A stretch of 64,000 nucleotides of DNA from a virus, in IMG/VR virus record IMGVR_UViG_3300009506_000001, positions 91,246 to 155,245 of that record; one strand, written 5' to 3'. A program made the translations under genes and the position numbers. Position 1 is the first letter of the stretch, and every line of letters begins with the position of its first letter. Below the pieces are notes generated by a model. It saw only the letters and a program-made list of their open reading frames with translations. It was not told where the DNA came from and did no database searches. Positions 7,127 through 62,384 of the stretch are shown piece by piece.

Positions 7127-7794
7127 GACTTCCCTTTCTGTTTCTTGTAAAACATATTTATGCGATCCACTAAAGGCTTGACGTAATCGTCAATTTTTCG
7201 CTTGAATAACAACGGCATCATGCCTTTTTCCACCGCTATAAGCACGACAATGTCCTCAATAAACTCACCGAACAGTTCATCATACATCAGAGCATACGCT
7301 GTACATTGGAGGAAATAATCTTCAATCATGTCTTCAGTTTTGTTGTTATTTGAGGTCTTGAAATCGATGATAGATAGCACACCGTCGTATTCGGCAACTA
7401 GATCAACACGCCCTGCTATTTTGAGCATGTCGCTGTAAAGCGGAACCTCTTGGGCACGAATGTTGCTAACCTTATTCAAACGAAGCTTCAACTGGTTGAA
7501 CAGCTTCACGTTTAATGGGTCGTGTCCCTTAGCGGGGTTCTCGACGTTATTAAGGTAATCCTCAGCCAGTTTGTGAACAGCTGTGCCACGTTCGGCACAT
7601 CGCTTCATCTCCTTATCAGCCTTTTGAGGACCAAGACTGTTACGCCAATCTTCTAACCAAGGTTTTTCTTTGGCACCAAGAACGGTGGTGACGGATGGGT
7701 ATTTCACCCCCGAAGGTGTTGTGTACCAACGTTGTCCGTTTGTGATTTTGTCTGTAAGTTCCTGAATAGGTGGAACGTTTGTGTGAATAAACAT
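7123..7794 (-). CDS. PD-(D/E)XK exonuclease, RecB/Cas4-like
   Basis: A 223-residue nuclease. The core shows an early CAERGTAVHKLAEDYL helix, the metal site in EVPLYSDMLKIAGRVDLVAEYDG (G-x-x-D) and IIDFKTSNN (D-x-K), then QCTAYALMYDEL. This arrangement belongs to PD-(D/E)XK exonucleases related to RecB and Cas4, found in T4-type phages near replication genes. It probably processes DNA ends during recombination or genome maturation (inference). A CTAAATA element lies just upstream. Confidence 0.8.
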   Translation of the reverse strand: MFIHTNVPPIQELTDKITNGQRWYTTPSGVKYPSVTTVLGAKEKPWLEDWRNSLGPQKADKEMKRCAERGTAVHKLAEDYLNNVENPAKGHDPLNVKLFNQLKLRLNKVSNIRAQEVPLYSDMLKIAGRVDLVAEYDGVLSIIDFKTSNNNKTEDMIEDYFLQCTAYALMYDELFGEFIEDIVVLIAVEKGMMPLLFKRKIDDYVKPLVDRINMFYKKQKGKS

Positions 7795-33268: not shown

Positions 33269-33427
33269 TTATTTTTCTTTGTGGAGCAGTTCTGCGACTT
33301 TTGCCTTAGCAACTAGAAATAGTTCTATGGCCTTAACCTGTAGTCTCTTTGCAAGCTCAGGCTGTGGGAAGTTCCAACCAACGTAGGCACCAACAACTAC
33401 ACCTACGGCAAGACTTAATACGGACAT
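33269..33427 (-). CDS. 52-residue membrane-associated protein
   Basis: ATG at 33427 with a GGGAG site upstream; TAA at 33269, three bases before the ClpP-like ATG. It has a hydrophobic N-terminus (SVLSLAVGVVVGAYVGW) and an amphipathic helix after. It lies between the tmRNA and the protease gene. No function recognised. Confidence 0.65.
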   Translation of the reverse strand: MSVLSLAVGVVVGAYVGWNFPQPELAKRLQVKAIELFLVAKAKVAELLHKEK

Positions 33428-33458
33428 CTCACGTTCTCCCTTATTATTGTTATAAATG

Positions 33459-33491
33459 GGAGCCTTTATTTGGTAACAAGGAAAAGGCTCC
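33459..33491 (-). terminator. Hairpin after tmRNA
   Basis: A nine-base stem (GGAGCCTTT...AAAGGCTCC) with a 15-base loop, downstream of the tmRNA coding piece. The following T-rich run is weak, so it may be a processing hairpin as much as a terminator. Confidence 0.5.
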
Positions 33492-33745
33492 TCTATAAAA
33501 CCCCGATGAGGCTTACGCTGCTAGGCGAAGGTCCTCATAGTAGTTGTCATCGTTTGCAACTAAAGTTTTGTGCTGGTTACGCCAGTCACCTCTCGGCTAT
33601 CTCCTGTCCTCTTATTCGCCCCGTCGAATGCCGTGTCATCCCCAATAACTACTTGTTTTAGTGGAGAAGATGGGAGTCGAACCCATGTCCGCAACGCTTC
33701 CAATTTCTATCATCGATAGCAGTGGTATTTATTGTCTAAATGCCA
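33492..33745 (-). ncRNA. ssrA: Circularly permuted (two-piece) tmRNA
   Basis: Read on the minus strand, the acceptor piece comes first (~33745-33661): a TTCGACT T-loop with stem ATGGG/CCCAT, then the 3' acceptor strand CTTCTCC-A-C at 33661. A 17-base spacer follows (33644-33660). The coding piece starts at 33643 with GGGGATG and a GGCATTCGACGGGG tRNA-like 5' half, then the tag frame at 33557-33513: ANDDNYYEDLRLAA, stop. The two acceptor strands pair with a G3-U70 wobble, the alanine identity element, and one U-U mismatch. This order matches permuted ssrA genes of alphaproteobacteria. It rescues stalled ribosomes and tags products for proteolysis. Exact ends are approximate. Confidence 0.9.
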
Positions 33746-33792
33746 CACCTCAGATTATACTGAGAGACGCTTGATAAGACAACAAAAACTAA

Positions 33793-54275: not shown

Positions 54276-54354
54276 TGGATCGCCGTACGGGATTCGAACC
54301 CGTGCAGACAGTGGTTTAGAAGCACCCGCTCTGGCCAGGCTGAGCTAACGGCGA
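54276..54354 (-). tRNA. tRNA with probable CUA anticodon (amber suppressor) or unusual Arg-UCU
   Basis: A 79-base cloverleaf with encoded CCA: acceptor TCGCCGT/ACGGCGA, D stem GCTC/GAGC, T arm ACGGG-TTCGAAT-CCCGT. The best anticodon stem (GGTGC/CCACT) leaves the loop TTCTAAA and anticodon CUA, with a G-U pair and a C31-C39 mismatch. Shifting by one base would give UCU (Arg) but breaks three stem pairs. CUA would read the amber codon UAG. Several genes in the window end in TAG, so global recoding is not implied. Discriminator base is U. Confidence 0.75.
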
Positions 54355-54355
54355 A

Positions 54356-54646
54356 TTATCCTAGTGCCCAATTGATTACTCTTTCACTCCATTCAGGCTT
54401 CTTGCACAGTTCCCATTTTTCCTCGTCCCTGTTCCACTCAAACCAAGTCTCAGCTTCGGACATTGGGTGAATGCCAGGACCAATCTTCTCAACAACAGCG
54501 TGCGTATAAAGACATTCGTGTATGTCGCACGCATTTTGCAGTACAGCTCGTATCGCATCCAGGCTGTGTTCGTAATATCCAAAACATCTTGTGTCTCGGA
54601 AGTAGTCGGATCGACTGTTGTTGCAAATTGTTGTTACGAAGTACAT
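54356..54646 (-). CDS. Hypothetical protein
   Basis: A 96-residue protein (VTTICNNSRSDYFRDTRCFGYY) with a C-terminal pattern GIHPMSEAETWFEWNRDEEKW...CKKPEW found in uncharacterised phage and bacterial proteins. It starts upstream of and ends two bases before the tRNA. No function known. Confidence 0.65.
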   Translation of the reverse strand: MYFVTTICNNSRSDYFRDTRCFGYYEHSLDAIRAVLQNACDIHECLYTHAVVEKIGPGIHPMSEAETWFEWNRDEEKWELCKKPEWSERVINWALG

Positions 54647-54891
54647 TTATAAATTCGTCTCACATCCTCTATCATGCCTGCTGCTGTTTGCAACGGCGTT
54701 AGCTTGTCCCGCATACCCTTATATACTTCACTCCGAAGATCAATAACGGCAACACGAGCCTTCTCAAGCGGAACCCCCGATTTTATCAGGACTGATTCAA
54801 CTTGCTCCTTATAAGCGAACGAACCGTTTTGTTTCTTCGTCAGGTTGTGCGAAGGGGGTGATTCGGGGTTCGTAAGAAAAAATTCACTCAT
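54634..54891 (-). CDS. Small hypothetical protein
   Basis: An 85-residue protein (MSEFFLTNPESPPSHNLTKKQNG) with a helical C-terminal half (EKARVAVIDLRSEVYKGMRDKLTPLQTAAGMIEDVRRIY). It overlaps the next gene by 13 bases. No function recognised. Confidence 0.6.
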   Translation of the reverse strand: MSEFFLTNPESPPSHNLTKKQNGSFAYKEQVESVLIKSGVPLEKARVAVIDLRSEVYKGMRDKLTPLQTAAGMIEDVRRIYKCTS

Positions 54892-54912
54892 GGGGAACGA
54901 GTGTACTACAAT

Positions 54913-55146
54913 CTATCTATTAGGGCAACGTTTTTCCCAAAGTCTGAGCATGAATTTGAAGTATGGTGAATTTGGGTGCTCGTCAAGTTTCTTTTCGTAG
55001 TCCATCACCTTTTGCTCACACTCTGTTGCCTCACGAATTTCAATCTGCTGCTGAACTGTGGGCACTGGGGGCTGTTGAGCGTTCATGGCCAATGACGAAC
55101 TGCTGAGGAATAAAGCAAGAAAGAAGATTTTAAGGTGTGTTCCCAT
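54913..55146 (-). CDS. Small secreted protein
   Basis: A 77-residue protein with a signal peptide (HLKIFFLALFLSSSSLAMNA) and a hydrophilic periplasmic part (QQQIEIREATECEQKVMDYEKKLDEH). It overlaps the membrane protein gene upstream by 17 bases. A spanin pair was considered but there is no lipobox Cys. Confidence 0.6.
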   Translation of the reverse strand: MGTHLKIFFLALFLSSSSLAMNAQQPPVPTVQQQIEIREATECEQKVMDYEKKLDEHPNSPYFKFMLRLWEKRCPNR

Positions 55147-55450
55147 TTTTCAGCTCTTCTATCTGTCTGGATATTTGTCTGTGCTTTTCGGCGAGATGCC
55201 TGTGCAGATCTGTATTGGGGTCAACGCTTTCCATGTCCCACAGGATGTCATCGGCCTCTCGCTGCATGTTGGAGATCATCACGCCACGATTCTTCACAAC
55301 CTCACGACGCAGCTCGCCGACAATCTCGTGTTTGGTGGCAAGCAGTTCATCATCGGTGGCCATTGTATTATAACCAGCAATGAGTGTGCCTGCCAATGCA
55401 ACGACAGCGGAGATACCACCAAAAATACTCAGAACTTTTGCCCAATTCAT
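55130..55450 (-). CDS. Membrane-anchored coiled-coil protein
   Basis: A 106-residue protein. An N-terminal membrane helix (VLSIFGGISAVVALAGTLIAGYN) is followed by a coiled coil (KHEIVGELRREVVKNRGVMISNMQREADDILWDME...). The layout is like inner-membrane spanins, but the evidence is only topology. Confidence 0.6.
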   Translation of the reverse strand: MNWAKVLSIFGGISAVVALAGTLIAGYNTMATDDELLATKHEIVGELRREVVKNRGVMISNMQREADDILWDMESVDPNTDLHRHLAEKHRQISRQIEELKNGNTP

Positions 55451-55492
55451 ATGAGTATTTACTGGTGGCCAGTAAAACTAATTAGGGTGTGA

Positions 55493-55738
55493 CTACTTCT
55501 TTCCTCGACTACCAACCCGCTGACTTGGTGGTAGCAGTGCTTCCGCTGCCTCCTGTACTCGTCGCTGGTTACGCTTTTTTGCTGCGGCTTTGTTACGCTT
55601 GCGGACCACACTTGGCTTCTCATAAAATTCACGATTGCGAACTTCTTGAATGATGCCGTCTTTGTCCACGTTACGCTTGAAGCGACGCATTAGGGACTCA
55701 AAACTTTCTTTGTCGTGCCTTAATTTTGCTGATGCCAT
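55493..55738 (-). CDS. rpsU: Ribosomal protein bS21 homologue
   Basis: An 81-residue protein with the bS21 signature: [46 protein letters not shown]. bS21 sits on the 30S subunit near the anti-Shine-Dalgarno end and can be replaced during assembly or exchange. Phage copies, known from large phages and SAR11 phages, may bias initiation towards phage mRNA. The extra Arg/Gln/Ala C-terminus ([14 protein letters not shown]) goes beyond the bacterial form. Confidence 0.92.
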
Positions 55739-55801
55739 TATAAATTCTCATTGTTAAGTTATGGTGTTATTATATATGCTTCATAAAACACAGGCAACAA
55801 A

Positions 55802-56257
55802 TTACTTGTGAACTTCCCTATGACAAGAACGACATAAGTGTACAATGTTGGTAGGCACATTACGCCCACCGTGTTGTAATTGTATAATGTGATGTCTGTG
55901 ATGTGGTTCTTTGGAACAGACAAAGCAGTGCTCATTCAACGTGAACATTTGACGTTCTTTTAGGGTGGTTAGTTTGTTTGGGTTATCTCTCCGTTCGTTG
56001 AACCCCTCTCGTCTTCTTTTTCGGACGCTATATGTGGGTCGTTTTAATACAACTCCAGCCATAGCCTTTAAAACGTTCATTTTGTAAGAACGATCAAACT
56101 GCTCAACGTTACACGACCGAACATCTTTAACTTTTTGATTGTTAGTTTGAAATTGAGCCCAGAACAAAGCCAGACAGGTTTTGAGGTCGTTTGGAATTTT
56201 CTTTTCTTGAATAAAACGAGCTACAACTGTTTTAACGTTACGATTTTTCTTTTGCAT
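55802..56257 (-). CDS. HNH endonuclease, free-standing
   Basis: A 151-residue protein. Residues ~105-150 hold an HNH site: NEHCFVCSKEPHHRHHIIQLQHGG and PTNIVHLCRSCHREVH, with two Cys pairs. The N-terminal ~100 residues are basic and helical. It lies at the 3' boundary of the large RNA candidate, where homing nucleases often occur next to RNA elements. Confidence 0.85.
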   Translation of the reverse strand: MQKKNRNVKTVVARFIQEKKIPNDLKTCLALFWAQFQTNNQKVKDVRSCNVEQFDRSYKMNVLKAMAGVVLKRPTYSVRKRRREGFNERRDNPNKLTTLKERQMFTLNEHCFVCSKEPHHRHHIIQLQHGGRNVPTNIVHLCRSCHREVHK

Positions 56258-56269
56258 ATCAATACACCA

Positions 56270-57187
56270 AGATGGTCTTCGGGCTGAGAATACACCGTCA
56301 GTATTCGTACCTTTGAAGGATTATCCCATCACCTGCTACAGCTAGGGTTCCCTTCGTTTCCACTCCGTCAAACAGAGTCTACGAACAAGGTTGCCTTTTT
56401 AAAGTGGTGGCGGTTCCACTGTCCACTGATGCTACTCTGCAGTCTATCTACCGTCAACCTTGCGGGCTGTAAAGGCTTGCGGGCCACCGTGCGACTTTCT
56501 ACAAATGCCTTCCGCCTTGCGAGCTTCGGACACCTTTATTCACCGTAGTGTAAAGAATTAAACCTCTTTAACACCAGTGCGGCCGCAACTTTGCGTTTTC
56601 GTTTAAAGATAGTGGGTTTGAATCCACAGCCTTCTGTTCCTAAAACAGACGCTCTACATTGAGCTATATCAACCAACCAAGATGTGTGCGGCCAGTAGTT
56701 TCGTGAGTTTTTGGCCCACGAGATGCTACACACCTCATGTCTATTTTCCTTGCGGGAAATATGACCGTTCTTCAAGACTGATGGGCAAGCATTTATCCTA
56801 CACTCGTTGTATGAGTGGTCTCAGGACTTACCCGACAACCTTTCAAACTGCGACGACGCCCTTGATTGCAGTCTCGGACTATCCGTCACTACCCTTTACC
56901 TCTTACGACTCGTTAGCTTGGTATGGTTAGGAGGGGGTACCAGCCCTCTCTTGAATCCCCTGTTCCCGCACGTGGCGGCAGGTCAGATTCTGCTCTTTCC
57001 CTAACACACTAACTTCACCGTTAAGACCGCCGCTCTTATCAACGATCTCCTGTCACCAGGGAGGTGAGGCTTGCATAGGAATACCTCCGAAGAGGTGCAG
57101 GTTAAGTTGGATCCCCTGCTTTCCCCTAGTCACCTAGGTTTATGCCCCTATGCGGCAATTCTGTAGTAATACTCTCTACACTTGATT
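56270..57187 (-). ncRNA. Large structured noncoding RNA candidate (GOLLD/ROOL-like)
   Basis: About 0.92 kb on the minus strand without a coherent reading frame, behind a promoter at 57194-57221 (TTGACT, 16, TATAGT). It contains a C(UUCG)G hairpin near 57085-57100 (ACCTCTTCGGAGGT), many GC-rich helices and, at 56590-56670, a tRNA-like segment. Giant phage RNAs of the GOLLD type have this size, lie near tRNAs and can contain a tRNA. The family call is inference: I cannot align to the covariance model. The 3' end is set by the HNH gene start at 56257. Confidence 0.55.
56590..56680 (-). other. tRNA-like segment inside the large RNA
   Basis: On the minus strand the segment has a D arm (GCTC-AATGTA-GAGC, lacking the GG of true D loops), a perfect anticodon stem TCTGT/ACAGA around TTTAGGA (UAG at the anticodon position) and a T arm GTGG/CCAC with TTCAAA but an eight-base loop. 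Acceptor pairing is only partial (GATA/TATC). It is either a decayed tRNA or a tRNA-mimic domain. Confidence 0.5.
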
Positions 57188-57193
57188 CGTCTT

Positions 57194-57221
57194 ACTATAC
57201 AGATGTTCTCTCAAAAGTCAA
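57194..57221 (-). promoter_or_regulatory. Sigma-70-type promoter of the large RNA
   Basis: TTGACT (57216-57221), a 16-base spacer and TATAGT (57194-57199) on the minus strand. The start would be near 57187, matching the beginning of the structured stretch. It is a host-type promoter, implying early or constitutive transcription. Confidence 0.65.
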
Positions 57222-57237
57222 CACCTGTATTTGAAAT

Positions 57238-57412
57238 TTAGGTGGTGGGACATTCCACCACCGCCTTACGCTCTATAAAATATTCAACCGCAATGCCGCG
57301 GCCGCCTCGTATTCAAACGCTTCTATGGCTTTCGCCTCCACTCATACGATTCTGCAGGATTCAATACCCAGCGTGTCGGTCGGCAGAACAACGCCTAACG
57401 CCTTAACGGGCA
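57238..57412 (-). ncRNA. Small RNA candidate
   Basis: A ~175-base transcript is suggested by a promoter at 57419-57447 (TTGACT, 17, TAAAAT) and a hairpin at 57241-57262 (GGTGGTGG-N6-CCACCACC). The inside has a GGC-GAAA-GCC hairpin. An alternative is a pair of short broken frames on the same strand (a stop at mid-length), so a decayed gene is possible. No known sRNA family is recognised. Confidence 0.4.
57241..57262 (-). terminator. Hairpin after the small RNA candidate
   Basis: A perfect eight-base stem GGTGGTGG/CCACCACC with a six-base loop, followed on the minus strand by TAAATTTC. The U-run is weak. Confidence 0.5.
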
Positions 57413-57418
57413 AGAAAT

Positions 57419-57447
57419 ATTTTATGGAAAATGATGGAAAAAGTCAA
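57419..57447 (-). promoter_or_regulatory. Sigma-70-type promoter of the small RNA candidate
   Basis: TTGACT (57442-57447), a 17-base spacer and TAAAAT (57419-57424). The -35 box abuts the terminator of the metacaspase gene. Confidence 0.6.
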
Positions 57448-57469
57448 CGGGGGATAAAAATCCCCCGTT
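57447..57469 (-). terminator. Terminator of the metacaspase gene
   Basis: ACGGGGGAT-TTTT-ATCCCCCGT on the minus strand, closely followed by TTGACTTTTT. It lies 37 bases after the metacaspase stop. Confidence 0.85.
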
Positions 57470-57505
57470 TTCTAGATAATTACAAATTGAAAAAATTTGA
57501 ACTTT

Positions 57506-58603
57506 TTAGGACATTGCGAAGAAAGCAACCACGGCGATCAAAAGGATAGCACCAGCTACGTACAGCAGCTTATTGCCACCCCCAGAGTCTCCACCGTTTC
57601 CATCCGCCGTGCCGCCAGTAGAATCGCTTCCAGACTCTGGAACAGCGACAGTGTTTTCTGGACTTGCGGCATCTTGTACAGAGTTTGACTCGTTTGCGTT
57701 TAGGCTCGACGTGTCGCCCTCCGACTGGGAGTCGGATGAAGTCTCTGCAGTACCCATTGGCTGCAAGAAACGATATGTGAACAGAGCGGCACTGCCGTTT
57801 AGTTCTGGACGCTGTGTGAACCCATACTTAACCATCTTGTTGTTGATGTCTTCAACCAGCTTCTTATAACCAACGTTATAAGCGTTTGCCTTTAGAGTAT
57901 CAACTAGCATGTAGGTAAAAGCACCCATGTACTTGCCACCAATGTATGCATCAGCAGAGGTTTGATCAGATTCACAACCAGAAAGCAAAAGACCAGTCTG
58001 ATTAAGATCACGAGCAACTGCACGTGGCTTATTGAAAGTTAATTCACGATCTTCAACAAGCGTCTGAACGTGAGCTGGTGGAGGAAGATAACGACCACCC
58101 TTTGCATGTGGCTTTCTGAGAACCTTCTTGATAAGACGTGTTGCAAGAGGCTGGTATTGGTTAGCTTGATCAAGACCAGAACCACTGTGGCAGCTATCAA
58201 GAGAAACCGTTAAGTTAACACCAGCTGGAACTGTATCAAAGATGCGGTGCAGGTCATCGTCACGGATCATCTTGTCAGCCCAGTTTAGATCAACAGGGCA
58301 AATGATTTCGTCCATGCCGTCTGGCTCATTATCACCACCTGGCTGGTTAGGGAACTGCGAACCGTGTCCACTGTAGTGAAAGTAAAGGACATCACCTGGA
58401 GCAGCATTTGCAACCAGATTTCGAAGGCCTTTAATGATTGCAGCGGTAGTTGCTGCGTTGTCGGTTAGCATTGTGATGTCTGTGAAACCATAATGGTTCT
58501 TTAAGACATCTTTCATTGCCGTGACATCATTTACACACCCACGTAGTGAGTAAGTGGTGCCAGGGTAGTTGATTCCTACTAGAAGTGCACGTTTCTTTGC
58601 CAT
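57506..58603 (-). CDS. Metacaspase (peptidase C14) with C-terminal membrane anchor
   Basis: A 365-residue protein. The caspase-fold p20 region starts KRALLVGINYPGTTYSLRGCVNDV, with catalytic His in YFHYSGHGSQ (H80) and Cys in VSLDSCHSGSG (C138); GLLLSGCESDQTSADAY and GAFTYMLVDTL follow as in type I metacaspases. Residues ~285-340 are a Ser/Gly/Asp/Glu linker and ~343-364 a hydrophobic helix (KLLYVAGAILLIAVVAFF), so it is tail-anchored with the enzyme in the cytoplasm. A late element CATAAATA lies 26 bases upstream. Metacaspases cut after Arg/Lys, usually with calcium. A role in lysis, host shutoff or virion processing is open. Confidence 0.93.
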   Translation of the reverse strand: MAKKRALLVGINYPGTTYSLRGCVNDVTAMKDVLKNHYGFTDITMLTDNAATTAAIIKGLRNLVANAAPGDVLYFHYSGHGSQFPNQPGGDNEPDGMDEIICPVDLNWADKMIRDDDLHRIFDTVPAGVNLTVSLDSCHSGSGLDQANQYQPLATRLIKKVLRKPHAKGGRYLPPPAHVQTLVEDRELTFNKPRAVARDLNQTGLLLSGCESDQTSADAYIGGKYMGAFTYMLVDTLKANAYNVGYKKLVEDINNKMVKYGFTQRPELNGSAALFTYRFLQPMGTAETSSDSQSEGDTSSLNANESNSVQDAASPENTVAVPESGSDSTGGTADGNGGDSGGGNKLLYVAGAILLIAVVAFFAMS

Positions 58604-58628
58604 ATATTTCCTCCTTGAAATGATATGG

Positions 58629-58636
58629 TATTTATG
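58629..58636 (-). promoter_or_regulatory. T4-type late promoter element CATAAATA
   Basis: Minus-strand CATAAATA 26 bases upstream of the metacaspase ATG and just downstream of the RNase P RNA 3' end, with an AAGGAGG-like site between it and the ATG. It suggests the metacaspase is a late gene. Confidence 0.6.
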
Positions 58637-58641
58637 AAAAT

Positions 58642-58886
58642 AGTTGGCCTATAGCCAGGGTTCTGTCGAGGACAATCATCCGTCTCTGGATTTCTCCAGG
58701 CTCGTGTGGGCCATACGCCCACCGTAGCTGCCACAACCCGACCTCATAGCGTGGAACTTGGCTCGGTCTGTTTGTGTTGCACGCCCCCTTTCGGTATCAG
58801 CAGTAAAGCGACTTTCGTCTCCTACAGGTTCCTGGCGTGCCCTGAACTTCCTCTACACTTAACGTGCAGCGATTGTCTAGCCAACT
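58642..58886 (-). ncRNA. rnpB: RNase P RNA (bacterial type A-like, compact)
   Basis: A 245-base RNA on the minus strand. P1 pairs AGTTGGC at the 5' end with GCCAACT at the 3' end. The catalytic core P4 is present: 5' strand GAGGAAGTTCAGGGC and 3' strand GACAGAACCCTGGCTATAGG, close to the bacterial consensus GAGGAAAGUCC.GGC / ACAGAACCCGGCUUAU. A GCGTGCAACACAAACAGACCG stretch matches the conserved GUGCAACAGA.A...ACCG region. It is much shorter than host rnpB (350-400), so some peripheral helices are missing. It should process tRNA 5' ends with the host protein subunit; no rnpA was seen. Confidence 0.85.
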
Positions 58887-58893
58887 ATAAATA
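58886..58893 (+). promoter_or_regulatory. T4-type late promoter element TATAAATA
   Basis: A perfect octamer on the plus strand 31 bases before the beta-propeller gene. It overlaps the first base of the divergent RNase P RNA and lies next to its -10 box. Confidence 0.6.
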
Positions 58894-58895
58894 CT

Positions 58896-58924
58896 ATTAT
58901 ATGTCAAAATTGGAGAAAAATCAA
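58896..58924 (-). promoter_or_regulatory. Sigma-70-type promoter of the RNase P RNA
   Basis: TTGATT (58919-58924), a 17-base spacer and TATAAT (58896-58901) on the minus strand. The distance to the predicted RNA start at 58886 is nine bases. The -35 box touches the ATG of the divergent gene. Confidence 0.7.
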
Positions 58925-59763
58925 TGCCGTTAATTATGTCAACCCCATTTGGTGCAGAAACAGTTGTGTATCCGCCTTGGGATCTAACAGGGTTTACATT
59001 ATCTTCGTCATTTTCTGTCGCAGGTGACGGTGCCAGTTTTCTACACGGCGTTGATTTCAACAATGATGGTACAAAAGGGTATGTTATTGACCAGAGTACT
59101 CATAAGGTATATCAATATTCACTATCAACTCCATATGACTTTTCTTCGCCATCGGCATCATACGAATCGCAGTATGATTTCACAGCACAGACAAACCTTG
59201 CTGGTGATATGGCGTGGTCCCGCAATGGACTATTCTTGTATGTGTTGAGTCAGTCTGGACAGAGAGTATACCAATACGAGCCTACGATTCCTTTTGATGC
59301 TAGTACGGCTGTTTATAGTGGTACATTTGTAGCCCTTAATCCTTTGAATGCCGGCATAGTAAATCCAAGGGGATTAGCGATTAGTGAAAATGGCGATCGG
59401 TTGTATGTGACAAACAGCGGTAGTGGTACTAATGGTGTTTATGAATTTATTCTTGGAACGAACTATGTGGTTAGCAGTGCTTCTTTTTCCTACTTTATAC
59501 CACCTGAAGGAACGTCTACGTGCCCTGGAATTCGATTCCAGCCAGGTGGTCTTTATATGACGTATATTAGTGATGCACCTGATAATGTTTACTTGTACCA
59601 ATTGACGTCAGCTTATGATCTTTCAACGGCAACGTTTATTCAAACCTTTGCTACAACTGATCCCGGCAACTTCCCTTCAGGCATTGCATGGAATCCAGAT
59701 GGTAGTTCGTTCTGCACCTGTGACTTTGGAACCAATACGGTTTATAGGTATGTTAAGGCTTAA
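58924..59763 (+). CDS. Beta-propeller-like protein, probably virion tail
   Basis: A 279-residue protein with a GGAG site upstream. It contains repeated blades: FNNDGTKGYVIDQSTHKVYQYS, WSRNGLFLYVLSQSGQRVYQYE, SENGDRLYVTNSGSGTNGVYEF and WNPDGSSFCTCDFGTNTVYRY, each with the pattern of D/NG followed by YV then VYQY. The first 20 residues resemble a short attachment peptide. Late promoter and plus-strand orientation match the tail fibre genes at 14-18 kb, so a fibre or decoration role is likely. Confidence 0.75.
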   Translation: MPLIMSTPFGAETVVYPPWDLTGFTLSSSFSVAGDGASFLHGVDFNNDGTKGYVIDQSTHKVYQYSLSTPYDFSSPSASYESQYDFTAQTNLAGDMAWSRNGLFLYVLSQSGQRVYQYEPTIPFDASTAVYSGTFVALNPLNAGIVNPRGLAISENGDRLYVTNSGSGTNGVYEFILGTNYVVSSASFSYFIPPEGTSTCPGIRFQPGGLYMTYISDAPDNVYLYQLTSAYDLSTATFIQTFATTDPGNFPSGIAWNPDGSSFCTCDFGTNTVYRYVKA

Positions 59764-59975
59764 TAGTCCTTAGGGATTCTCTTGCCTTCTTTGCGGGAAT
59801 ACTTTTTCTTGTCTTCATGACGACCAGCACCAGATGTCTGAGCAAATTTTGCCACGGGATTAGATGGCTTATCCATTGTTGGATTCTCCACCTTCTCTTT
59901 GCGTGCTCGCTTTGCCTCACGCTTCCGTTTGTTTGCACTCTTTGCCATCTCTGTTAGTATCTCTGCTAGTTTCAT
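59760..59975 (-). CDS. Small basic protein with MKLAEI leader
   Basis: A 71-residue protein: leader MKLAEILTEMAKSANKR followed by a basic stretch (KREAKRARKEKVENP) and a hydrophilic end. The stop overlaps the convergent propeller gene stop by four bases. The leader fits a capsid-targeting sequence with (L/I)-x-E cleavage, so it may be a packaged DNA-binding protein (inference). Confidence 0.65.
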   Translation of the reverse strand: MKLAEILTEMAKSANKRKREAKRARKEKVENPTMDKPSNPVAKFAQTSGAGRHEDKKKYSRKEGKRIPKDY

Positions 59976-59976
59976 T

Positions 59977-60495
59977 TTACTTTCCCAAAAAGTATTTGCG
60001 AGCTGCTTCTAGATTTGCATCTAGTTCTTCCAGTACTTCAAAGTCATCGATGTTTGGCATAACCCAAATGACTTCCATTGGAAACTTGTTTGTAATCGCA
60101 TGCCACAATGCGTTATGCTTCTGCACATTGCGATAGAGCTCATCATCAGCGGCAGCCTTTTGAATTGCTCGACGCAATTTTTCTGGTGCCCTTGTTAAAC
60201 GATGACGCCAACTCTTTAATGCATCGTTCAAATCATATCCCGATTTGAAGCCACCTGACATAACAGGACGCTTCAAAAACGCCTGCATCTCTCGCATTTG
60301 AGGTCCGTATTTACGCTGAACGTCCATTGCAAGTGCTTGATCTCTTGCATCAGCGGCGTCAATGTCTGCAGCGATTGCATCTACGTCCAGACCATGATCC
60401 CGCTGTTTGGTGGAAATGTTGTTGATGAAATCTCGTTCTTGCTTTTTCGCACCGAAGTCAACAACATCACCCTCAAGAATGTCAGATAGTTTCAT
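59977..60495 (-). CDS. Hypothetical protein with MKLSDI leader
   Basis: A 172-residue helical protein (MKLSDILEGDVVDFGAKKQERDF; LDVDAIAADIDAADARDQALAMDV; LEELDANLEAARKYFLGK). A perfect TATAAATA at 60502-60509 sits just upstream, so it is probably expressed late with the small basic protein that follows. The leader suggests packaging in the head (inference). Confidence 0.7.
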   Translation of the reverse strand: MKLSDILEGDVVDFGAKKQERDFINNISTKQRDHGLDVDAIAADIDAADARDQALAMDVQRKYGPQMREMQAFLKRPVMSGGFKSGYDLNDALKSWRHRLTRAPEKLRRAIQKAAADDELYRNVQKHNALWHAITNKFPMEVIWVMPNIDDFEVLEELDANLEAARKYFLGK

Positions 60496-60718
60496 AAAGT
60501 GTATTTATATCTGACAGCTTTCGTTTGTGGAACTTTGATTTGATGCGAATTGTATAGCATCTGTGGGCAGAATTATAATAGATTGAGTTTGGTGATTTCT
60601 GAATTTTTTCACAGAGTTCAACAAGCGATTGCTTGTTTGAAGAGTATGCATATACATTTCCACCTATTCCTGTCTTGATGGTTGCTTTCTCAGAAACAGA
60701 TGTGAAAATCCTACTCAT
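60482..60718 (-). CDS. Small hypothetical protein
   Basis: A 78-residue protein (MSRIFTSVSEKATIKTGIGGNV; YYNSAHRCYTIRIKSKFHKRKL). It overlaps the next gene start by 14 bases, and the late element lies inside its 3' end. No function recognised. Confidence 0.6.
   Translation of the reverse strand: MSRIFTSVSEKATIKTGIGGNVYAYSSNKQSLVELCEKIQKSPNSIYYNSAHRCYTIRIKSKFHKRKLSDINTLYETI
60502..60509 (-). promoter_or_regulatory. T4-type late promoter element TATAAATA
   Basis: A perfect octamer on the minus strand, seven bases before the ATG at 60495, inside the 3' end of the upstream gene. The short distance would give a very short leader. Confidence 0.5.
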
Positions 60719-60725
60719 AAAGAAT

Positions 60726-60810
60726 TGGTACCCGAGGAGGGAATCGAACCCCCACGCCTTGCGGCACTAGAACCTAAATCTAGCGTGTCTACCAGTTCCA
60801 CCACTCGGGC
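60726..60810 (-). tRNA. tRNA-Leu (anticodon UAG)
   Basis: An 85-base class II tRNA with encoded CCA. Acceptor GCCCGAG/CTCGGGT (G-U first pair), anticodon stem CTAGA/TCTAG around TTTAGGT with UAG, a long variable arm GCCGCAAGGC and T arm with TTCGATT. It reads CUA codons. Confidence 0.95.
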
Positions 60811-60813
60811 AAA

Positions 60814-61026
60814 TTAACCGTACTTTCGTTCTTCATTTTTCTTGGCAAGGTATTCGAGAAAGCGATCCAGCTCAAATTCCTTACCTAGCATGGAAGTTGT
60901 TTTCTTCCATTCAACGAGCTCGTAACACTCGTGGCTACAAACAGTTCCGCCGTATACGTGGAATGTGGTTGGGAAAGGCCTACCACATCCGTTGCAAAAA
61001 ACTTCTTGTTCAGAAAATAATGCCAT
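60814..61026 (-). CDS. Small zinc-finger protein
   Basis: A 70-residue protein with two Cys pairs (EVFCNGCGRPFPTTF and TVCSHECYELVEW) and a helical end (LDRFLEYLAKKNEERKYG). The arrangement resembles treble-clef fingers. It abuts the next gene by one base. No function recognised. Confidence 0.65.
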   Translation of the reverse strand: MALFSEQEVFCNGCGRPFPTTFHVYGGTVCSHECYELVEWKKTTSMLGKEFELDRFLEYLAKKNEERKYG

Positions 61027-61247
61027 TATGGGTTCAAAAAGTCCATCGCTCTATCGTATGCATCATCGCCTGGATCCGAACCAGAGTCAACAGCATCAGG
61101 AGCACATGGGGCTAACACAACACCCAACCCAGCCCAAAGTGCACGACACTCCTCGAATTCATCTTCTGTCATTCGGATGCCACGGATTTGATCCGCTGCA
61201 GCGTCTAGTAGTTCTTCGAAGGTGAAGTCATTGACCAGATCGACCAT
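61026..61247 (-). CDS. Small acidic protein, hypothetical
   Basis: A 73-residue protein (MVDLVNDFTFEELLDAAADQIRG; DEFEECRALWAGLG). It overlaps the Fe-S-like gene upstream by 20 bases. No family recognised. Confidence 0.6.
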   Translation of the reverse strand: MVDLVNDFTFEELLDAAADQIRGIRMTEDEFEECRALWAGLGVVLAPCAPDAVDSGSDPGDDAYDRAMDFLNP

Positions 61248-61389
61248 CCTGAATCTCTTTTATTATCTGTTGGCGTTGCTCCTCAGTATATTTGAGCCAT
61301 TCACCAATCTGTTGTTTTGTACGCTTACAGCCTGTGCAGACTCCGTCTTTCAGCTTACAAACATTGATACAAGGAGTCGAAACTTTCAT
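61228..61389 (-). CDS. DUF1289-like small Cys protein
   Basis: A 53-residue protein from the ATG at 61389 (MKVSTPCINVCKLKDGVCTGCKRT), with the C-x3-C...C-x2-C pattern and IGEWLKYTEEQRQQII helix of DUF1289, a family of small predicted metal or Fe-S proteins common in proteobacteria. The longer open frame upstream covers a tRNA and is not used. Confidence 0.8.
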   Translation of the reverse strand: MKVSTPCINVCKLKDGVCTGCKRTKQQIGEWLKYTEEQRQQIIKEIQDGRSGQ

Positions 61390-61507
61390 GTTCTTAGTAG
61401 TTAGGTTTAAAGGGACCTTCAGCTCAGTAATTACGACATTGACGTTTGCAACCATCTCTGACAACCTACCCACTCTCCCAGCAGCGTCGTGGGTCCGCTG
61501 AACTACT

Positions 61508-61583
61508 TGGAGCGGGCGAAGAGGCTCGAACTCTCGACCTGTTGCATGGCAAGCAACTGCTCTACCAACTGAGCTACACCCGC
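61508..61583 (-). tRNA. tRNA-Gly (anticodon GCC)
   Basis: A 76-base cloverleaf with encoded CCA: acceptor GCGGGTG/CGCCCGC-type pairing, anticodon stem GTTGC/GCAAC around TTGCCAT with GCC, T loop TTCGAGC. It reads GGC and GGU. Confidence 0.93.
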
Positions 61584-61591
61584 TTGTGTTT

Positions 61592-62143
61592 TTATTTATT
61601 GCGACTCCGTCCGACGACAACCATTCCGAGAATACCGGAACCAAATAACCATCCAGCCGCAGGGACCGGAACAGTAGTCACATTCTCGTACACATCAAAC
61701 GAGTACGAAAGTAGGTTATAGTCCGCGACTCCCGGATAGTTAGACGTAAATGTTGCCTGGACGGGGTTTGACAATATTGCTGCAACCTGTTCTAGTGTTA
61801 GCGAAACGTTGTATACTGTTGGGCTGATGCTTGGGCTGTACGAGGCGGATTCGAACACGCTGCCCACGTCTGAGAATGTTACCACAGCACCATCGTATCC
61901 TTCGTTGGAAGTGGAATCGTCTTTCACTGTGAACGTAAAATCAACGCCGACCAGATCACCGGAAAGAAGCATGTCAAGGGTGACAGCATTGTTACCATTG
62001 ATATACAGTCCAGAACCAAAACTGTCGGAATATGTGGTACAGAGGTTCGCACCCGTAACACCTGAAGGGTCACAGGACGACACAGTCACAGCTGAACTTG
62101 CGGCTGAAAAAAGCATCAGCGCAGCGAAAACGAGTTTCTTCAT
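61592..62143 (-). CDS. Secreted protein with VPLPA/PEP-CTERM-like sorting tail
   Basis: A 183-residue protein from the ATG at 62143, with GGAGAT upstream. Residues 1-20 are a signal peptide (KKLVFAALMLFSAASSAVT). The middle is Ser/Thr/Val-rich beta sequence with two Cys pairs. The C-terminus is VPVPAAGWLFGSGILGMVVV followed by a basic RSRNK: the proline motif, membrane helix and Arg cluster of VPLPA-CTERM proteins, normally processed by exosortase. No exosortase is in the window, so host machinery would be needed. The longer upstream frame covers tRNA-Pro and is not used. Confidence 0.8.
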   Translation of the reverse strand: MKKLVFAALMLFSAASSAVTVSSCDPSGVTGANLCTTYSDSFGSGLYINGNNAVTLDMLLSGDLVGVDFTFTVKDDSTSNEGYDGAVVTFSDVGSVFESASYSPSISPTVYNVSLTLEQVAAILSNPVQATFTSNYPGVADYNLLSYSFDVYENVTTVPVPAAGWLFGSGILGMVVVGRSRNK

Positions 62144-62178
62144 TAAATCATCTCCTAGGGGTTGCGAATGGTTAAAAT

Positions 62179-62255
62179 TGGTCGGAGTACGAGGATTCGA
62201 ACCTCGGACCCCCTGCTCCCAAAGCAGGTGCTCTACCAAGCTGAGCTACACTCCG
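62179..62255 (-). tRNA. tRNA-Pro (anticodon UGG)
   Basis: A 77-base cloverleaf with encoded ACCA: acceptor CGGAGTG with ACTCCG, anticodon stem CCTGC/GCAGG around TTTGGGA with UGG, T loop TTCGAAT. The first base C is usual for tRNA-Pro. It reads CCN codons. Confidence 0.95.
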
Positions 62256-62306
62256 ATCTGATGATAGATTACATGAAATGTCGGAAAAGGACAACATATA
62301 TTTACT

Positions 62307-62384
62307 TGGAGTCCCTAGCGAGAGTCGAACTCGCATCTAATCGTTTAGGAAACGATTGCTCTAGTCCATTTAAGCTATAGGGAC
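62307..62384 (-). tRNA. tRNA-Arg (anticodon CCU)
   Basis: A 78-base cloverleaf with encoded CCA: acceptor GTCCCTA/TAGGGAC, anticodon stem ATCGT/ACGAT around TTCCTAA with CCU, T loop TTCGACT. It reads AGG, a codon often rare in hosts. Confidence 0.93.

What the first reader, a model, noticed from the sequence alone, without database searches (positions are those of the whole stretch)
56258..57221. ~0.9 kb structured noncoding RNA with an internal tRNA-like domain
Seen: almost one kilobase without a convincing gene, behind a sigma-70-type promoter, with UUCG hairpin, GC-rich helices and a tRNA-like segment carrying UAG in the anticodon position. Known: giant ornate RNAs (GOLLD, ROOL) are found in phages near tRNA genes and some include a tRNA. 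Inference: this is a member or relative of those families, or a new class; the tRNA-like part looks too degenerate for translation.
Basis: partly seen in the sequence, partly recalled or inferred. Interest (0 to 1): 0.88.

Follow-up and report, generated by a model that had tools for sequence, protein, structure and literature searches.

The report
Phage GOLLD RNA with tRNA-like insert
This stretch of a large phage genome encodes a roughly 0.9-kilobase GOLLD RNA, a known kind of phage RNA that assembles into hollow cages, and relatives show that the tRNA-shaped piece inside it is kept by evolution although it can hardly work as a tRNA.

Summary
Confirmed. On the minus strand, 56736-56281 is a full-length match to Rfam GOLLD (202 bits; cut-off 150) and holds a tRNA-like segment at 56673-56604 (52 bits, anticodon UAG). 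With its less conserved 5' domain and a sigma-70-like promoter at 57221-57194, the RNA spans about 57187-56281. Internal tRNAs in GOLLD are already published, so this is a new member of a known kind.

New here is the comparison. I collected 40 distinct members of its subfamily, mostly from phage contigs. Among the 21 found by patterns that ignore the linker, 17 carry a tRNA-like insert at this place and one a circularly permuted tRNA. The arms covary (11 of 13 pairs), and so does the 5' domain (93 of 114 pairs). Yet the inserts lack the outer acceptor pairs (1 of 35 complete, against 82 of 86 neighbouring free tRNAs) and CCA (2 of 35 against 81 of 86). Anticodons turn over fast and are skewed to Lys and Arg(UCU). 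So the insert is a maintained tRNA mimic, probably inside an RNA cage, not a translating tRNA. A decoy role against tRNA-targeting host factors is my preferred but unproven mechanism. Sinorhizobium phage Phosso, a cultured isolate, carries an unannotated homologue and makes it testable.

The parts
57194..57221 (-). sigma-70-like promoter TTGACT-N16-TATAGT
   Evidence: about 7 nt upstream of the inferred start; p about 0.07 against shuffles on its own
56281..57187 (-). inferred whole GOLLD RNA, about 907 nt (5' end inferred from promoter and conservation, 3' end from the Rfam model)
56737..57187 (-). GOLLD 5' domain (outside the Rfam model); conserved columns begin about 57167
   Evidence: 114 consensus pairs, 93 with double changes, 91% of cells paired; the window forms 92 of 110
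57083..57096 (-). hairpin ACCUC-UUCG-GAGGU
56281..56736 (-). GOLLD 3' domain, Rfam RF02032 model 1-416
   Evidence: 202.3 bits, gathering score 150
56604..56673 (-). tRNA-like insert in the GOLLD linker; anticodon UAG at 56642-56640; acceptor 5 of 7 pairs, no CCA, A53-C61 mismatch, one G of the D-loop GG lost
55802..56257 (-). HNH endonuclease gene starting 24 nt after the GOLLD 3' end, no terminator between; neighbour, probably not part of the RNA system
54276..62384 (-). tRNA island that holds GOLLD: CUA (54276-54354), Leu UAG (60726-60810), Gly (61508-61583), Pro (62179-62255), Arg CCU (62307-62384); no tRNA in the other 91 kb of the record

Best explanation
The locus encodes a GOLLD RNA of a jumbo-phage-like virus (shown by model and covariation). 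By homology it should fold as a 5' cap domain and a 3' ring domain and assemble into a closed multi-subunit RNA cage (inferred; 14-mer for GOLLD env-38). The tRNA-like insert sits in the linker that in env-38 is disordered and points into the lumen (position inferred), so each cage would hold about 14 tRNA cores. These cores are kept as tRNA-shaped baits, not as translating tRNAs: D, anticodon and T arms are maintained, while the outer acceptor pairs and CCA are absent, so they should be neither charged nor released. Most likely they bind or are cut by a host factor that recognises the tRNA elbow or anticodon arm, such as an anticodon nuclease made in defence, and so protect the phage's and host's working tRNAs. 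Fast anticodon turnover and the skew to Lys and Arg(UCU) would then reflect which nuclease the host uses. My probabilities: GOLLD membership 0.98; cage assembly 0.8; insert not a working tRNA 0.9; decoy or sponge role 0.3. The stated confidence is for the chain as a whole.
For: GOLLD membership. 5' domain structure: 34 sequences at 59% mean identity, 93 of 114 pairs with double changes, energy z about -29 against column shuffles. tRNA arms: 11 of 13 pairs with compensatory changes. Acceptor and CCA deficits: 35 inserts against 86 free tRNAs of the same loci and the window, p about 1e-23. Insert presence is stable (at least 4 changes on the tree) while the insert's state, mainly its anticodon, changes at least 24 times. 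Lys + Arg(UCU): 19 of 35 inserts against 5 of 153 free tRNAs; still p about 6e-4 when close relatives are collapsed to 5 of 15. In the window, a Leu anticodon sits on a short-variable-loop body whereas the free tRNA-Leu(UAG) has the long arm. tRNA-Lys is a target of phage-triggered PrrC (PMC10264068) and PARIS AriB (PMC11455837). The linker lies inside the cage and tRNAs are sometimes present there (PMC12286853).
Against: No expression, cage or nuclease evidence exists for this phage. Three relatives of the unbiased set, plus XacN1 and Stenotrophomonas phages CM1/RAS14, have GOLLD without a tRNA, so the insert is dispensable. Many anticodons (Gln, Trp, Ile, Met, UCA, Leu UAG) are not known to me as nuclease targets. 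The window's own insert is among the weaker ones (A53-C61 mismatch, lost D-loop G, 5 of 7 acceptor pairs), which could be decay. The anticodon skew comes from related phages found by pattern searches.
Confidence: 0.35

Rival explanations
1. The linker tolerates insertions. Phage tRNA genes land there by recombination within tRNA arrays and then decay; the insert has no role in GOLLD.
For: GOLLD sits inside tRNA arrays. Three of 21 unbiased subfamily clusters have other hairpins there. The mycobacterial GOLLD holds a 'pseudo tRNA gene' with no separate expression (PMC6582537). L285 holds a nearly intact, permuted tRNA.
Against: Compensatory changes in all three arms over deep divergence. The window and its sister L277 share the same insert although only 65% identical over the RNA, with compensated stems. 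The acceptor deficit is uniform (about 4-5 inner pairs) rather than random. Presence changes only about 4 times.
Confidence: 0.3
2. The insert is a real tRNA precursor. GOLLD is a carrier from which the tRNA is cut out, trimmed and CCA-tailed for translation.
For: Arms and U33 are mostly kept. Insert anticodons rarely duplicate free tRNAs within about 1.5 kb (2 of 35), as if complementing the array. ARAGORN calls many of the relatives' inserts.
Against: The outer acceptor pairs are missing (1 of 35 complete) and CCA is absent although 81 of 86 neighbours encode it. Leu UAG anticodons sit on short-variable-loop bodies. A free tRNA-Leu(UAG) exists 4 kb away in the window.
Confidence: 0.12
3. The tRNA-like domain is a structural or processing element: it recruits RNase P/RNase Z or helps folding, stabilising or counting subunits during cage assembly.
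For: Fixed place in the linker and a maintained fold. tRNA-like structures are common processing signals (general knowledge).
Against: Typical GOLLDs have a short linker without a tRNA and env-38 assembles with a disordered linker (PMC12286853). The acceptor stack is short for RNase P (general knowledge). A processing role does not explain anticodon turnover.
Confidence: 0.15
4. The insert docks ribosomes or translation factors into or onto the cage.
For: Kretsch et al. state that ribosomes bind GOLLD in pull-downs (PMC12286853). The phage carries bS21 and a permuted tmRNA.
Against: bS21 is not enriched with GOLLD (10 of 50 records against 18 of 50 controls). The pull-down is not tied to the insert in the text read.
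Confidence: 0.08

Closest known systems
GOLLD RNA, Rfam RF02032 (Weinberg 2009; cryo-EM of env-38, PMC12286853)
   Same: Full-length match of the 3' domain over the cut-off; a less conserved 5' domain of similar length; phage genome; tRNA island; about 0.9 kb; variable linker at the same place.
   Different: Divergent subfamily (202 bits against about 320 for the typical members found here); the linker carries a tRNA-like domain, which most typical relatives lack.
GOLLD of Mycobacterium tRNA arrays (PMC6582537, PMC9569102)
   Same: GOLLD inside a tRNA cluster, internal pseudo-tRNA, HNH endonuclease gene nearby.
   Different: Different host and genome; the passages read report no covariation test of the internal tRNA, and HNH proximity is not above background in the relatives of the window.
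ROOL RNA
   Same: Large phage RNA near tRNAs that forms a cage.
   Different: No Rfam match to ROOL in the window.
GOLLDs of jumbo phages XacN1, CM1/RAS14 and Phosso (unannotated in those records)
   Same: GOLLD in phages with the nearest DNA polymerases; Phosso has the tRNA-like insert, anticodon UCU.
   Different: XacN1 and CM1/RAS14 have no tRNA in the linker.

Membership tests
GOLLD (RF02032) | Covariance-model score over the curated cut-off across the whole 3' domain | tested here: met
   202.3 bits against 150, model 1-416
GOLLD (RF02032) | Structured 5' domain upstream of the 3' domain | tested here: met
   Covarying consensus of 114 pairs in 34 sequences; the window forms 92 of 110. 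Not compared helix by helix with env-38.
GOLLD (RF02032) | Phage or prophage genome near tRNA genes | tested here: met
   All five ARAGORN tRNAs of the 155-kb record lie within about 6 kb; DNA polymerase closest to jumbo phages
GOLLD (RF02032) | Homo-oligomeric cage in solution | not testable with these tools
   Needs RNA synthesis and cryo-EM or mass photometry
GOLLD (RF02032) | Expression during lytic growth | not testable with these tools
   No transcriptome; only a promoter-like site
ROOL | Match to the Rfam ROOL model | tested here: not met
   No ROOL match at gathering or relaxed threshold
functional tRNA | 7-bp acceptor stem | tested here: not met
   Window 5 of 7 pairs; family 1 of 35 complete, free tRNAs 82 of 86
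functional tRNA | CCA end (encoded by the neighbouring tRNAs) | tested here: not met
   Absent in the window; 2 of 35 inserts against 81 of 86 free tRNAs. Addition after transcription is not testable here.
functional tRNA | D, anticodon and T arms with covariation | tested here: met
   11 of 13 pairs with compensatory changes
functional tRNA (Leu) | Long variable arm with a Leu anticodon | tested here: not met
   Short variable loop with anticodon UAG; the free tRNA-Leu(UAG) has the long arm

The most novel reading that the evidence does not exclude
A whole clade of phage GOLLD cages carries, in its lumen, a tRNA mimic whose anticodon is re-tuned by evolution to bait tRNA-targeting host defences: an RNA nanocage used as an RNA-based counter-defence.
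Probability: 0.2. Interest if true: 0.88.

Novelty: new member of a known kind. Interest (0 to 1): 0.52.

Why it matters
GOLLD has no known function although its cage structure is solved. A clade in which the linker nearly always holds a maintained but acceptor-deficient tRNA mimic with fast-changing anticodons gives a specific, testable hint of what such a cage might handle, and a cultured jumbo phage (Phosso) carries one.

Tried and rejected
A special link of GOLLD to the nearby bS21 gene, suggested by the OLE-RpsU hypothesis: not supported (10 of 50 GOLLD records against 18 of 50 control records, and about 16-18 kb apart in a lineage that has both). HNH adjacency as part of the system: 6 of 39 relatives have an HNH match within 3 kb, about 4 expected from the density of HNH matches in those records (arithmetic by hand). 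Search for relatives of the HNH protein: none. The first pattern scan was too short and expected to give mainly chance matches; it served only as a control set. Genome-contig scan: the record titles suggest mostly chance matches; they were not scored with the GOLLD model. DNA similarity to phages found only XacN1, to plasmids nothing. A second permuted-tRNA GOLLD: none found. A conserved promoter: only 10 of 37 relatives significant. A conserved terminator: 7 of 43 against 1.0 expected, none in the window.

Full report
WHAT WAS CLAIMED AND WHAT IS THERE. The finding is about a gene-poor stretch at 56258-57221. On the minus strand Infernal with Rfam 15 gives GOLLD (RF02032) at 56736-56281, 202.3 bits against a gathering score of 150, E 1e-55, over the whole model 1-416. 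Inside it, tRNA (RF00005) matches 56673-56604 with 52.3 bits. ARAGORN does not call this segment but calls five other tRNAs between 54.3 and 62.4 kb and none in the other 91 kb of the 155-kb virus record, so GOLLD lies in the phage's tRNA island. The Rfam model covers only the 3' domain. Alignment with relatives shows that conservation begins near 57167, just after a promoter-like site TTGACT-16-TATAGT at 57221-57194.

RELATIVES. Pattern scans of IMG/VR plus the GOLLD model gave two groups. Typical members score mostly 250-332 bits and have a short linker (hits of about 360-417 nt). A divergent group, to which the window belongs, scores 151-227 bits. Merging copies at 95% identity left 40 distinct members including the window, L152 and XacN1. 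Their linkers were read directly. In the 21 clusters found by 3'-domain patterns that ignore the linker, 17 have an ordinary tRNA-like insert, one (L285) a permuted tRNA, and three (L273, L278, L279) small hairpins instead. The scan selected for tRNA features and is not used for that count. The window's sister is L277 (100/100 support, 65% identity), with the same insert and the same UAG anticodon.

COVARIATION. The 5' domain, outside Rfam's model, was folded on 34 sequences of 59% mean identity: 114 pairs, 93 with changes on both sides, 91% of cells paired, consensus energy -157 against -22.5 +/- 4.6 for column shuffles; the window forms 92 of 110 pairs. For the insert, 35 sequences give the D, anticodon and T stems, with compensatory changes in 11 of 13 pairs. 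Column shuffles ignore relatedness; R-scape was not available.

IS THE INSERT A tRNA? Measured in the same way, the seven acceptor positions are paired at 5.3 on average in inserts and 6.95 in 86 free tRNAs of the same loci and the window (p about 1e-23); all seven are paired in 1 of 35 against 82 of 86, and CCA follows in 2 of 35 against 81 of 86. The inner four positions are nearly always kept and the second is mostly lost, a regular shortening rather than random decay. Anticodons: CUU 10, UCU 7, UAG 4 (with L249's loop read with a bulge, as), and ten others. On the tree of the rest of the RNA the insert's state, mainly its anticodon, changes at least 24 times while presence changes about 4 times. 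Lys plus Arg(UCU) make up 19 of 35 inserts against 5 of 153 free tRNAs within about 1.5 kb; collapsing close relatives leaves 5 of 15, p about 6e-4. In the window a Leu anticodon sits on a short-variable-loop body, whereas the free tRNA-Leu(UAG) has the long arm. The window's insert also has an A53-C61 mismatch and a shortened D loop, so for this copy partial decay cannot be excluded.

MECHANISM. From cryo-EM of env-38 (PMC12286853) GOLLD forms a closed 14-mer; the variable linker (nt 497-538, in the 3' region that starts at 421) points into the lumen. The insert here starts 63 nt after the start of the 3' domain, i.e. in that linker (inference). The preferred explanation is a cage that presents tRNA mimics to a tRNA-binding or tRNA-cutting factor; tRNA-Lys is a target of PrrC (PMC10264068) and PARIS (PMC11455837). 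Shown: membership, covariation, acceptor and CCA loss, anticodon turnover. Inferred: expression, cage, lumen position, decoy role. The main rival is a tolerated, partly decaying insertion.

KNOWN OR NEW. Internal tRNAs in GOLLD are known (PMC12286853; PMC6582537, citing Weinberg 2009), including a mycobacterial 'pseudo tRNA' without separate expression and an HNH gene in the same cluster. The window is thus a new member of a known kind. The clade-wide conservation, the regular acceptor loss, the anticodon turnover and the permuted example were not found in the papers I could read; Weinberg 2009 and Morgado 2020 were not held, so this is not a proof of novelty.

PHAGE AND NEIGHBOURS. The DNA polymerase is nearest to Xanthomonas jumbo phage XacN1 (44%) and Stenotrophomonas phages CM1/RAS14. 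All three carry GOLLD without a tRNA insert, and Sinorhizobium phage Phosso carries GOLLD with one (anticodon UCU) followed by a terminator, in a gap without annotated genes. The HNH gene starts 24 nt after GOLLD with no terminator between, so read-through into it is possible; neither HNH nor bS21 is enriched near GOLLD in relatives.

Noticed in passing
L285 (contig of L257) linker, L257 about 7609-7713: A circularly permuted tRNA inside a GOLLD linker: T-arm, ACTCCCC-ACCA, spacer, GGGGAGT, D-arm, anticodon arm. Put back in order, ARAGORN calls an intact 90-nt tRNA-Ile(gat) with full acceptor and CCA; as it stands nothing is called. GOLLD would be joined through the variable arm and the acceptor end would face outwards. 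Only one case found.
   Followed up: partly
window 33422-33751 (-): Permuted tmRNA (Rfam RF04321, 114 bits; ARAGORN tag DDNYYEDLRLAA). Over-cut-off matches also in 11 of 40 records, most with related GOLLDs, and within about 1.3 kb of GOLLD in XacN1.
   Followed up: partly
window 54276-54354 (-): tRNA with CUA anticodon (amber suppressor type, ARAGORN 'tRNA-Pyl'), 2 kb from GOLLD. XacN1 has two annotated tRNA-Sup and CM1 a UUA tRNA near their GOLLDs. TAG ends only 7 of 57 selected ORFs in the window.
   Followed up: partly
window 55493-55738 (-): Phage-encoded ribosomal protein bS21 (Pfam 64.6 bits), downstream of GOLLD and HNH; not enriched with GOLLD elsewhere.
   Followed up: yes
window 57506-58603 (-): Caspase-like protease (PF00656, 116.6 bits) with a C-terminal hydrophobic stretch, directly upstream of GOLLD; seems an unusual gene for a phage, no PHROG match.
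   Followed up: no
window about 56687-56667 and 56277-56257 (-): A near repeat CATCTTGGT...TTGATAT at the 5' edge of the tRNA-like insert and again just before the HNH start codon; may be chance or a trace of recombination.
   Followed up: no
PV764938 33004-34049 (Sinorhizobium phage Phosso): Unannotated GOLLD with a tRNA-like insert (anticodon UCU) in a cultured jumbo phage, ending in an intrinsic terminator.
   Followed up: partly
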